Source: Xylanimonas allomyrinae (lineage in GTDB: Bacteria > Actinomycetota > Actinomycetes > Actinomycetales > Cellulomonadaceae). Taken from it: 64,000 bases of DNA. The position numbers and the translations under genes are program-made. Location: assembly GCF_004135345.1 (NCBI RefSeq), contig NZ_CP035495.1:2542001-2606000 (forward strand), in the 5' to 3' direction. Positions 1,204 through 62,736 of the stretch are shown here, piece after piece. Below the pieces are notes generated by a model. It saw only the letters and a program-made list of their open reading frames with translations. It was not told the origin of the DNA and did no database searches. The number at the start of each line of letters is the position of its first letter. Within the stretch, counting starts at the first letter, position 1.

Positions 1204-2690
1204 CTACTCCTCCTCACCAAGGAGCGCGGTGAGCCAGTCGTCGTCGTCCTGCCCGGCCGACGTGCCGTCCTCCGTCGACGAAGCCGCCACCTCAGGTGCG
1301 GAGCGGGCCGGGGCGGGCGGCTCCGCCGCGCCGTCGAACTCGTCGGAGAGGTCCAGGACGTCAACGCCGAGGTCATCGAGCCAGTCGAGACCCGACTCCG
1401 TGACGCCCGCGTCCGCCGAGAGCACCGGCGCCGCACCGACGGCGACGTCGGCGTCCACGCTCGCGTCGGCGGCATCCTCGTCGTCGGCGCCCCACAGGTC
1501 CGCCAGCCAGTCGTCGCCCGGGTCGAGCCCCGGGTCGTCGCCGGCCACGGAGGGCTGCACCGTCTCGGCCTGCTCCTCCGCGGGCTCCGCGTGCTCTTCC
1601 ACGACCTCGACGTCGGCCGACACGGTAGGTGCCGCCTCCGCGGCCACCTCGTCGAGCACGCCCTGCGCCGCCTCCCCGTCCGGGGCGGCCGACTGCGCGA
1701 CCGACGGCCACTTCGGCTGGAAGACGGGCGCAGCCGCGACGGCCGCGACGTCGACCAGCGGTTCGGGCTCGGGCTCGGGCTCGGGCTCGGGCTCGGGCTC
1801 GGGCTCGGCCTCGGGCTCGGCCTCGGCCTCGGGCTCAGGTTCGGCCTCGGGCTCGGGCTCGGGCTCGGCCTCGGCCTCGGGCTCGGGCTCGGGCTCGAGC
1901 GCCGACTCAGGCTCAGCCTCGACCTCGGGCTCGACCTCGGGCTCAAGCTCGGGCGTGATCTCCAGGTCGACGTCCGGATCGACGCCGAACGTCTCCTCCG
2001 GACCCTCGAACGGGAAGTCCAGCCCGACGCCGGAACCGGACACGTCGAGAGCGGGCGCGTCGAGGATGGCCCCGCCGCCGGCACCTCGGCCTGGCCGCGC
2101 CGCAGCCTGCGGTAACGCGCGATCGCGACCCCAGCCGACGCGACAGCGATCGCCGCGAGCGCACCGAGCACGACAGGCCGCCAGCCTCCCATGACGCCTC
2201 CAGATCCCGACAAGCTCGTCTGTTCCGCGGTGACGACGCCGAGCACGCAGCGCGCGTCAGCGCCGCCCGTGACCGCGCTCGCTCTCCACGGCTCCGTCTC
2301 GCCCGCCGCAGCGGTCGCGACCGCCTGTGTCCGGCCGACGACGGTGCCTTCCGCGGTCGCGAAGAACACGTCGATGTCGAACGCGAGATCGCCCCGCGTC
2401 GGGTTCGTGACCCGGCCCTTGGCGACATATGACTCGCCTTCGGCGCCGCACGAGTCGATCGTCACGTACTCCCGCGCCTGCTCTCCGGCGCCCGACTGCT
2501 CAGGCGAAGCCGCCGGCGCGGGCGTCTCGGCCGGCGCGGGCGTGTCCGCCGGCGCGGGCGTCGTCGGCTCGTGCGCGACGCGCGCCGCCGACCTGCCGGC
2601 GAGTTCCAATGTGGCCGCCGAGCTCGTGCTGGCACCGAGTCCAGTGCCGAGCACGGCTACGAGGCCGGCCACAGCGAAGAATCGCCTCAC
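1204..2690 (-). CDS. Single-pass membrane protein with acidic Pro-Glu-rich cytoplasmic tail; one apparent frameshift
   Basis: The GTG start has AAGGA upstream. An N-terminal signal peptide (residues 1-26) and a Pro/Ala linker lead to a small extracellular beta domain with two cysteines (C81, C148). A transmembrane helix (about 171-192) ends in RYRRLRRGQ, so the rest is cytoplasmic. The tail of about 300 residues is extremely acidic, with a long Pro-Glu tract and three related motifs near its end: DDWLADLWG, LDWLDDLG and DDWLTALLG. The reading frame breaks at a CCCC run (2070-2073). One extra base there joins QAEVPAAG to AILDAPALDV and gives a protein of about 495 residues; as read, the first frame turns into Arg/Ser nonsense. 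It sits between the giant adhesin gene and the sigma-like gene on the same strand. The family is not recognised. The topology suggests envelope-to-cytoplasm signalling or a scaffold. Confidence 0.7.
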
Positions 2691-2915
2691 GTTGTGCGTC
2701 CTTGTCGAATTCGGGCGCTCGCGCGCCGCTCCCCCCGCCCCCGCATCTGCGGCAGGGGGGCGACTCCGGACTGAGTGTGGCCCGTCGGAACCGCGGACCG
2801 GCCGACGTGTCGCACGCAGGCCAAGCGGCGTCGCGGTCCGTCCCTTCGGCGCCCGTGCGCTGCACCCGGAAGCATGCCTGACCTGCGGTCCGGCGCCGTC
2901 TCCGGGCGTGAAGAA

Positions 2916-2952
2916 GGCTCGGGCCCCTCCCCGTGGGGAGGGGGCCCGAGCC
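2916..2952. terminator. Hairpin after the giant adhesin gene
   Basis: A GC-rich inverted repeat with arms 2916-2932 and 2935-2952 lies 41 bases past the adhesin stop. One arm has a 4-C run opposite a 5-G run; a fifth C would make the stem perfect, matching the run-contraction pattern seen in genes. No U tract follows. The rest of the 302-base gap (2691-2992) holds no other recognisable feature. Confidence 0.65.
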
Positions 2953-2992
2953 CGTTCAGACGGTCATCCGGACCTTCCGGTGACCGTGTGGG

Positions 2993-60116: not shown

Positions 60117-60189
60117 GGCGGCGGGGGCAGACGCGGCCAGGCGGGCAGCGTGAGGCGGGTCGAGGGACGAGCGCCCGACGCGCGGGACG

Positions 60190-61862
60190 CTACCCGCGCG
60201 CGAGCGTCGGGGTCGCCGCCTGGAGGCGGCGCGTGTACTCGTGCCGCGGGGCGTCCCACACCTGCGCGGTGGTGCCCTGCTCGACGATCTCGCCCGCGCG
60301 CATGACGGCGACGCGGTCGCACAGGTGGCGCACCACGGCCAGGTCGTGCGAGACCAGGACCAGCGTCAGCCCGCGCTCGTCCGCGAGCCGGGCGAGCAGG
60401 TCGAGCACCTGCGCCCGCACCGACACGTCGAGGGCGCTGACGGGCTCGTCGGCCACCAGCACCCGCGGACGGCACACGAGCGCCCGCGCGATCGAGATGC
60501 GCTGGCGCTGACCGCCGCTGAACTGGTGCGGGTAGCGATCGGCGGCGTCGGCGGGCAGGCCGACGGCGTCGAGCAGCTCACGCACCAGCGACCGGCGCCC
60601 CGCCCGCGTGGCCGCCTGCGGCAGCGAGCGCCGGTTGGCGGGGTTGAGGAGCGGCTCGGCCACGATGTCGGCGACCGTCATGCGCGGGTCGAGCGATCCC
60701 TGCGGGTCCTGGAACACGAGCTGCAGCTCGCTGCGTACGCGCGCGACGGCGCGCGACCCGGCGACGCCCCGGCGGCCGGCACCGGGCCCGGCGAGGGTGA
60801 CGCCGGCGACCTCGACGGTGCCCGACGTCGGCGCGTCGAGCCCGGCGAGCAGCCGCAGGAGCGTCGTCTTGCCGGCGCCCGACTCGCCGACGATGCCGAA
60901 GCGCTCGCCGTCGGCGACCTCCAGGGACACGTCGCGCAGGGCGTCGACGGCGCCGCGCCGGCCGCGGCGGTAGCGCCGTGAGACGGCCTCGAGGCGGATG
61001 GCGGGGGCGGGCCGGGCGCGGGCGCGGGCGCGGCCTCGGGCTCGGGCTCGGCATTGGTCGCGTGCGCTGCGCGGCGGCGGGGCGTGAGGTCGGAGGCGTC
61101 GAGCAGGCGGCGCGTGTACTCGTGGCGCGGGCTGCGGAAGACGTCCTCGACCGTGCCCTGCTCGACGATCGTGCCGTCCTTCATGACGAGCACGCGCTCG
61201 CACACGCGCGAGACCACCGCCAGGTCGTGCGTGATGAACAGCAGCCCGGTGCCCCGCCGGGCCACGAGCTCGCCCATGAGGTCGAGAACCTGCGCCTGCA
61301 CGGTGACGTCGAGCGCCGTCGTCGGCTCGTCGGCCACCAGCAGCGCGGGGTCGTTGGCGAGGGCCATCGCGATCATCACGCGCTGGCGCTGCCCGCCCGA
61401 GAGCTGGTGGGGGTAGGCGCGCGCAGCGGCCGCGGGGTCGGGCAGGCCGACCTCGGTGAGCAGCGCGACGGCACGGCGCCGGGCGGCGGCAGACCGCGCG
61501 CGGCCCACGCCGTCGTCGTGCAGCGTCACGACCTCCGCCACCTGGGCGCCGACGCGCACGAGCGGGTCGAGGGCCGTCATGGGCTCCTGGAAGATCATCG
61601 ACACGAGCGAGCCGCGCAGCCGCGCGAGGCGCCGCTCGGGGCGGGCGAGCAGGTCGCGCTCGCCCGCGACGTCGACGGTGCCCGTCGCGGTGAGGTTGTC
61701 GGGCAGCAGGCCCAGCACCGAGAGCGCGGTCAAGGACTTGCCGCTGCCGGACTCGCCGATGAGGCCGACGCGCTCGCCCACGCCGACCGTCAGGCTCACG
61801 CCCTCGACCAGGGTCTGGTGGCGGGTGCGGACCGCGAGGTCCGCGACCCGCAGCGCGGTCAT
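60190..61862 (-). CDS. Fused double ATPase of a peptide/nickel-type ABC importer; one apparent frameshift
   Basis: Two nucleotide-binding domains in one chain of about 557 residues. First: GLIGESGSGKS, LSGGQRQRVMIA, LLVADEPTTALD. Second: GIVGESGAGKTT, FSGGQRQRISIA, VLVADEPVSALD. The Ala/Pro linker contains the break near GGG 61009-61011; one more base joins PAPAPAPG to PAPAIRLEAVSRRYRRG. Both halves end in the oligopeptide-type phrase PRHEYTRRL. Two separate genes are possible, but no start codon with a ribosome site was seen for the second half. Its ATG overlaps the permease stop (ATGA). Confidence 0.88.
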
Positions 61863-62736
61863 CGCAGCCCCTTGAGGCGCGGGTCGAGCACGTCGCGCAG
61901 GCCGTCGCCCAGCAGGTTGAAGCCCAGCACCGCGACGGCGATGGCGACGCCCGGCGCGATCGCCAGGTTGTCGTGCACCCCCAGGAACTGCTGCGACTCC
62001 TGGAGCATGCGCCCCCACGACGGCGTCGGGGGCGCGGTGCCGAGCCCGAGGAACGACAGCGCGGCCTCGGCGAGCACCGCGAGGCCGAAGTTGACCGAGC
62101 ACTGCACCACGACGATCCCGGCGATGTTGGGCAGCACGTGCCGCCACGCGATCGCCCACGCCGGCCGGTTCGCGGCACGCGCCGCGAGCACGTAGTCGGT
62201 GCGCATGACCTGGAGGGTGCCCGATCGTGCGACGCGCGCGAACGCGGGGATCGCGCCGATGCCGAGGGCGACCATCGCCGTCGTCGTCCCGGACCCGAAC
62301 GCGGCGCCCAGGACGATCGCGAGCAGCAGGCCGGGGAAGGCGAGCAGCACGTCCGAGGCACGCATGAGCAGCAGTCCGGGCACCCCCCGGCGCATGCCGG
62401 CCACGATGCCCACCGGCACGCCGACGACGGCCGCGATCCCGACGGCGACCACGCCGACGTACAGCGTGATGCGGGCGCCGGCCATGATCTGCGACAGCAC
62501 GTCGCGGCCGAACCGGTCGGTGCCGAGCCAGTGCGCGGCGCTCGGGCCCTGGAGGCGGACGGCGGGCACGGCCCGCACCGGGTCGTACGGCGTCCACACG
62601 AGCGAGACGAGAGCGGTCACGACGACGACGGCCACCAGCGCGGCGCCGATGACGAGCTGCGGGTGGACGCCGGGACGGCGCGGCGGTCCGACGGCGGCGG
62701 TGTCGACGAGAGGGGTGCCGGGGGCAGGACGCTCAT
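61859..62736 (-). CDS. ABC importer permease, DppC-like; N-terminal frameshift likely
   Basis: About 292 residues with five to six helices. Motifs: HWLGTDRFGRDVLSQIMAGA, the permease coupling loop ARAANRPAWAIAWRHVLPNI, and SFLGLGTAPPTPSWGRML. The intact frame has no good start. ATG 62736 overlaps the previous stop (ATGA) and enters the frame if one C is added to the run 62720-62724, giving MSVLPPGTPLVDTAAVGPP. Pairs with the DppB-like permease upstream. Confidence 0.9.

What the first reader, a model, noticed from the sequence alone, without database searches (positions are those of the whole stretch)
2070..62724. At least fourteen genes broken by single-base loss in short G/C runs
Sites: 2070-2073, 19495-19498, 23140-23144, 27169-27172, 27450-27453 (plus two more in that gene), 38385-38387, 41144-41147, 46879-46881, 49498-49501, 53503-53506, about 59308, about 60088-60092, 61009-61011, 62720-62724, and perhaps near 56923. 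In each, adding one base restores a family-typical protein; none needs a base removed. Essential or housekeeping genes (purS, purT, corA) are hit. This looks like systematic homopolymer contraction in the assembly, and any automatic annotation of this genome will contain false pseudogenes.
Basis: partly seen in the sequence, partly recalled or inferred. Interest (0 to 1): 0.75.

Follow-up and report, generated by a model that had tools for sequence, protein, structure and literature searches.

The report
False gene breaks from assembly errors
Many genes in this bacterial genome look broken, most likely only because the sequencing or assembly dropped single G or C letters from short runs; even a gene that bacteria cannot live without appears split, so the breaks look like errors in the record and not biology.

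Summary
Of the 14 listed sites, 10 lie in genes that are open in close relatives and shift frame in the window, each as if one base were lost: 6 found automatically, 4 by reading frames beside relatives. The 'perhaps' site near 56923 is weakly supported. Four sites (2070, 27450, 38385, 41144) have no relative to test them.

The pattern is genome-wide. In 146.8 kb aligned to relatives, 12 of 12 robust breaks lack one base modulo 3. Setting aside events whose only reference is this genome, G008 has 2 breaks and G002, G010 and G005 none of their own. Breaks sit at G/C runs: 15 of 17 intervals hold a run of 4 or more, 2.3 expected. Decisively, rpoC, found at one place only, is split the same way, and so is glmM. 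The platform is inferred; no reads were available.

The parts
2071..2072 (-). frame switch in a Pro/Glu-rich, apparently membrane-anchored protein gene
   Evidence: codon-usage HMM, direction 'missing'; frames read; no relative available
19495..19498 (+). frame switch in a coiled-coil-like protein gene (label from reading the sequence)
   Evidence: G002, G005, G008 open, net -1 in all three; the HMM called the other strand here
23133..23150 (+). frame switch just after the start codon of a radical SAM gene
   Evidence: conserved N-terminus in another frame from the ATG; G002, G008, G010 open; Pfam Radical_SAM
27160..27172 (-). frame switch in purS
   Evidence: G002, G005, G008, G010 open, net -1 in all four; PurS domain
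27430..27900 (+). up to three frame switches in the Pro-rich stretch before a DUF4190/Septum_form gene
   Evidence: frame reading only; HMM calls the stretch non-coding; not proven
38384..38391 (-). frame switch between pilin-like body and LPXTG anchor (described only)
   Evidence: domains in two frames; HMM 'missing'
41133..41147 (-). frame switch in a DUF11/SpaA/MucBP surface protein gene (described only)
   Evidence: HMM 'missing'; domains in two frames
46879..46882 (+). frame switch in a STAS-domain gene
   Evidence: G002, G005, G008, G010 open, net -1 in all four; STAS domain
49497..49500 (-). frame switch in purT
   Evidence: four relatives plus C. cellulans open; ATP-grasp domain split
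53495..53519 (+). frame switch in corA
   Evidence: G005, G008 open; CorA domain split
56895..56925 (-). probable frame switch at the start of tctB
   Evidence: one relative, G002; weak
59305..59320 (+). frame switch near the C-terminus of a sensor kinase gene
   Evidence: G002 open; HMM switch nearby at 59272
60075..60092 (+). frame switch in the last residues of a response regulator gene
   Evidence: G002 open
61002..61011 (-). frame switch between the halves of a fused ABC ATPase
   Evidence: G005 and G010 have one open frame, net -1 modulo 3; HMM 'missing'
62713..62723 (-). frame switch just after the start codon of a dppC-type permease gene
   Evidence: G002, G008, G010 open; G010 automatic

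Best explanation
The frame breaks are very probably not in the organism's DNA. They are residual single-base deletions in the assembled consensus, mostly inside or beside short G/C runs, of the kind left when a long-read assembly of a high-GC genome is not polished with accurate reads. Shown here: the breaks, their one direction, their run context, open copies in relatives, their spread over the sampled genome, and their presence in rpoC and glmM. Inferred: that noisy reads and incomplete polishing caused them; the platform is not known. If the aligned sample is representative, the strict count means roughly 310 false breaks in the main contig (95% range about 160 to 550), probably more, because the strict rule found only 5 of the 10 window sites that relatives support.
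For: 12 of 12 robust breaks in 146.8 kb of aligned sequence lack one base modulo 3 (sign test p = 0.0005); 9 of the 12 rest on two or more relatives and 3 on one. Reference genes split in G000: 6/132 (G002), 9/128 (G008), 9/115 (G010), 5/25 (G005), every event 'missing'. Between relatives: G002 0/142, 0/127, 0/37; G008 2/142, 1/134, 0/41; G010 0/128, 1/134, 0/50; G005 0/37, 0/41, 0/51; the one G010 event is the mirror of a G008 break. rpoC is one locus in two overlapping frames, profile 2-199 and 194-1146. glmM is split 1-164 and 168-441. 15 of 17 breaks hold a G/C run of 4 or more, expected 2.3; none holds an A/T run above 2. HMM scan with stop filter: 39 missing to 3 extra in 564 kb. PMC12007338 (abstract and one section read): indels were the majority of errors, most of them false deletions, tied to homopolymers of 2-8 bases.
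Against: No reads were available, so the error was not seen directly, and no second assembly of the species was found or compared. The deficit of long G/C runs is slight: 4-base runs 6683 per Mb against 6390-7800 in the relatives (none), 5-base runs 1464 against 1597-2150, 6-base runs 142 against 133-225. 5 of 7 families tested are not split in the matched part, though the infB open frame is short, 852 aa against 895-1049 in the eight relatives with a full match. PMC12007338 found deletions at A/T runs more often than at G/C runs in a 59% GC genome, unlike here; this 73% GC genome has few A/T runs.
Confidence: 0.96

Rival explanations
1. Real pseudogenes: the strain has lost many genes by run slippage, for example as a mutator or under relaxed selection.
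For: Slippage in runs is a natural mutation, and actinobacteria generally lack MutS/MutL (recalled). Some genes that are probably dispensable are hit, e.g. a second polC/dnaE-type gene in two pieces at G000 735179-737499.
Against: rpoC and glmM are hit; 12 of 12 robust breaks go in one direction, where slippage would also add bases. I made no separate search for older, decayed genes.
Confidence: 0.02
2. Programmed frameshifting or transcriptional slippage makes full proteins from the shifted genes.
For: Not excluded by sequence alone; shifts sit at runs. One hexamer is just over the chance limit (z 5.8 against 5.7) and another sits at it (5.7).
Against: Relatives have the same genes in one frame; no 4- or 5-mer passes its chance limit beyond the runs; G/C runs of 4-5 occur by the thousand per Mb, about 1 in 100 of them at a strict break.
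Confidence: 0.01
3. Chance: open frames in a 73% GC genome are so long that frame switches are over-read.
For: 240 ORFs of 90 aa or more in 64 kb. The filtered codon-usage scan alone gives 3 events in G002, 3 in G010 and 12 in G008. Four window sites have no relative to check against.
Against: Ten window sites match open genes of relatives on both sides of the switch, and between relatives the homology test gives 0 of its own in G002, G010 and G005 and 2 in G008.
Confidence: 0.01

Closest known systems
Residual homopolymer deletions in long-read bacterial assemblies (PMC12007338, Kastor; abstract and section 'Profile of Kastor detected errors' read)
   Same: Single-base false deletions at short homopolymers that fragment genes and inflate pseudogene counts.
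   Different: There the deletions were commonest at A/T runs in a 59% GC genome; here they are at G/C runs in a 73% GC genome. Platform unknown here.
Indels at homopolymers in MinION assemblies of bacteria including a high-GC actinobacterium (PMC6325685; passages read)
   Same: Indels over-represented at homopolymers; annotation quality slightly lowered, put down to frameshifts; the high-GC genome needed more coverage.
   Different: Those authors had short-read data for the same strains, which are not available here.

Membership tests
long-read homopolymer contraction error | net loss of one base, rarely gain | tested here: met
   12 of 12 robust breaks; 39 to 3 in the filtered HMM scan; 20 to 6 in the looser scan of 400 kb
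long-read homopolymer contraction error | located in mononucleotide runs | tested here: met
   15 of 17 with a G/C run of 4 or more, expected 2.3 (four of the 17 intervals set by hand, and the purT and ABC intervals taken in their narrower form)
long-read homopolymer contraction error | spread over the genome irrespective of gene function, essential genes included | tested here: met
   rpoC and glmM split, 5 other families not; HMM switches in 17 of 22 pieces, the window included
long-read homopolymer contraction error | absent from relatives | tested here: met
   G008 has 2 breaks of its own
long-read homopolymer contraction error | general shortage of long runs in the assembly | tested here: inconclusive
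   slight shortage of 5-base runs; 4- and 6-base runs within the relatives' range
long-read homopolymer contraction error | accurate reads show longer runs | not testable with these tools
   no reads held
true pseudogenes | dispensable genes only, lesions in both directions | tested here: not met

The most novel reading that the evidence does not exclude
The base losses are not uniform over runs but mark chemically modified G/C stretches that a basecaller misreads, so the error map carries a trace of this organism's DNA modification. My k-mer test with 17 sites found only two hexamers at the chance limit, so this is neither supported nor excluded.
Probability: 0.07. Interest if true: 0.3.

Novelty: not a real feature. 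Interest (0 to 1): 0.1.

Why it matters
Gene counts, pseudogene counts and claims of gene loss for this genome should not be trusted without accurate reads. A few hundred genes may be wrongly called broken, some of them essential. The assembly is still listed as 99.99% complete, so a completeness score need not reveal the problem.

Tried and rejected
Considered and rejected: real pseudogenes, programmed shifting, chance (see rivals). A shared sequence motif beyond the runs was looked for and not convincingly found. The run-length spectrum gave only a slight signal. The first codon-usage scans held many junctions that are ordinary overlapping genes, so I moved to homology. Several breaks printed near gene starts came from my own 30-codon extension of the reference genes; one search repeated the search without it, and the counts are. 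One search stopped with a script error after its search; one search used its saved result. In one search one window junction with an abnormal start was flagged 'extra' (62738); it is the dppB/dppC overlap, where the frames show a lost base. Rows dropped from the control counts: events in relatives whose only reference was G000, 7 in G002, 4 in G008, 5 in G010 and 2 in G005, because these are what a break in G000 looks like from the other side; and the G010 event against G008, the mirror of a G008 break. By reference gene, with G000 as reference, the splits are 7/141 in G002, 5/134 in G008, 5/122 in G010 and 2/27 in G005. I sorted these by eye and did not pair each with a G000 break.

Full report
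What the window is. The window is 64 kb of the main contig of a 3.85 Mb, two-contig genome with about 73% GC. The closest named hit of its PurT piece is Cellulosimicrobium cellulans (85%), so it is most likely a Micrococcales actinobacterium. Its genus mates G002, G005, G008 and G010 keep part of the gene order.

The listed breaks. I placed proteins of relatives on the unchanged window DNA. Breaks at 19495, purS, STAS, purT, corA and the fused ABC ATPase appear automatically, each with two or more relatives and each short by one base modulo 3. Reading three frames beside relatives supports 23140, 59308, 60088 and 62720 (two of these rest on G002 alone), and weakly 56923. Sites 2070, 38385 and 41144 rest on codon usage and domain placement. 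Site 27450 and its two companions lie in low-complexity sequence; the frames step the right way but the stretch is not called coding.

Is it special to the window? No. I sampled 500 kb elsewhere in the genome. In the codon-usage scan with a stop filter, 564 kb of this genome shows 39 switches that lack a base and 3 with one extra; the window has 4 of these 42. Controls: G002 2 and 1 in 360 kb, G010 2 and 1 in 200 kb, G005 none in 80 kb, G008 10 and 2 in 360 kb. A looser earlier version separated less well: 20 and 6 in 400 kb here, 2 and 2 in 200 kb of G002, 7 and 3 in 200 kb of G008. By homology, 12 robust breaks fall in 146.8 kb of aligned sequence, all 12 missing a base; 9 rest on two or more relatives and 3 on one. 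That is 8.2 per 100 kb (95% range 4.2 to 14.3), or roughly 310 for the main contig if the aligned sample is representative. In the window the strict rule found 5 of the 10 sites that relatives support, so the true number is probably larger. G008 has two breaks of its own and may carry the same fault to a lesser degree.

Why error and not biology. rpoC, encoding the beta' subunit of RNA polymerase, matches at one place and is split there into two overlapping frames; 8 of 10 genus mates show it whole in one frame, and the other two, in assemblies of about 260 contigs, have partial matches. glmM is split too; 8 of 10 mates have it whole, G003 has pieces on two contigs, and G004 shows only a short fragment and paralogues. 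A methionine aminopeptidase, an RNase E/G and a RecQ-type helicase are also hit (names recalled from the sequences, not from a family search). Results on the other side: rpoB, ftsZ, dnaE and ileS are open through the matched part, and infB is open through its matched domains but has a shorter frame than the relatives with a full match. So 2 of 7 families searched this way are split; glmM was chosen after its break had been seen, and rpoC after the HMM had flagged it, so the 2 of 7 is not an unbiased rate. That no bacterium can live without a working rpoC is established knowledge, not a result of these calls.

Run context. Of 17 breaks with a usable interval, 15 contain or touch a G/C run of 4 or more, against 2.3 in random coding intervals of the same widths, and 7 have a run of 5 or more, against 0.4. 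Beyond the runs, two hexamers reach the chance limit and no 4- or 5-mer does. Only about 1 in 100 G/C runs of 4 or more is at a strict break, so this is a bias and not a rule.

Known precedent. PMC12007338 (abstract and one section read) describes gene-fragmenting errors in nanopore assemblies, most indels being false deletions tied to homopolymers of 2-8 bases. PMC6325685 (passages read) reports indels over-represented at homopolymers and frameshifts in MinION assemblies, a high-GC actinobacterium included. The platform of the present assembly is unknown.

Verdict.

Noticed in passing
window 16451-16536 (+): SAM riboswitch (Rfam RF00162, 46.3 bits) ahead of a rhodanese-like gene and a Cys/Met metabolism PLP enzyme gene.
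   Followed up: no
window 2993-14677 (-): An unbroken 3,894-residue open frame with many bacterial Ig-like domains (Big_6, Big_1, Invasin_D3 type repeats) and thrombospondin type 3 repeats; a sortase gene lies at 15429-16304 on the same strand.
   Followed up: partly
window 37198-44083 (-): A sortase gene beside LPXTG/SpaA pilin-like and DUF11/MucBP surface protein genes; described only.
   Followed up: no
G000:C1:735179-737499: A second polC/dnaE-type gene (dnaE2/ImuC-like, name recalled) matches in two pieces in different frames here and in one frame in G001, G002, G005, G008 and G010.
   Followed up: partly
G008: L133 4822-4825 and the joined L174-L175 stretch 22756-22801: Relative G008 shows two breaks of its own and a raised codon-usage switch count, so it may carry the same assembly fault to a lesser degree.
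   Followed up: partly
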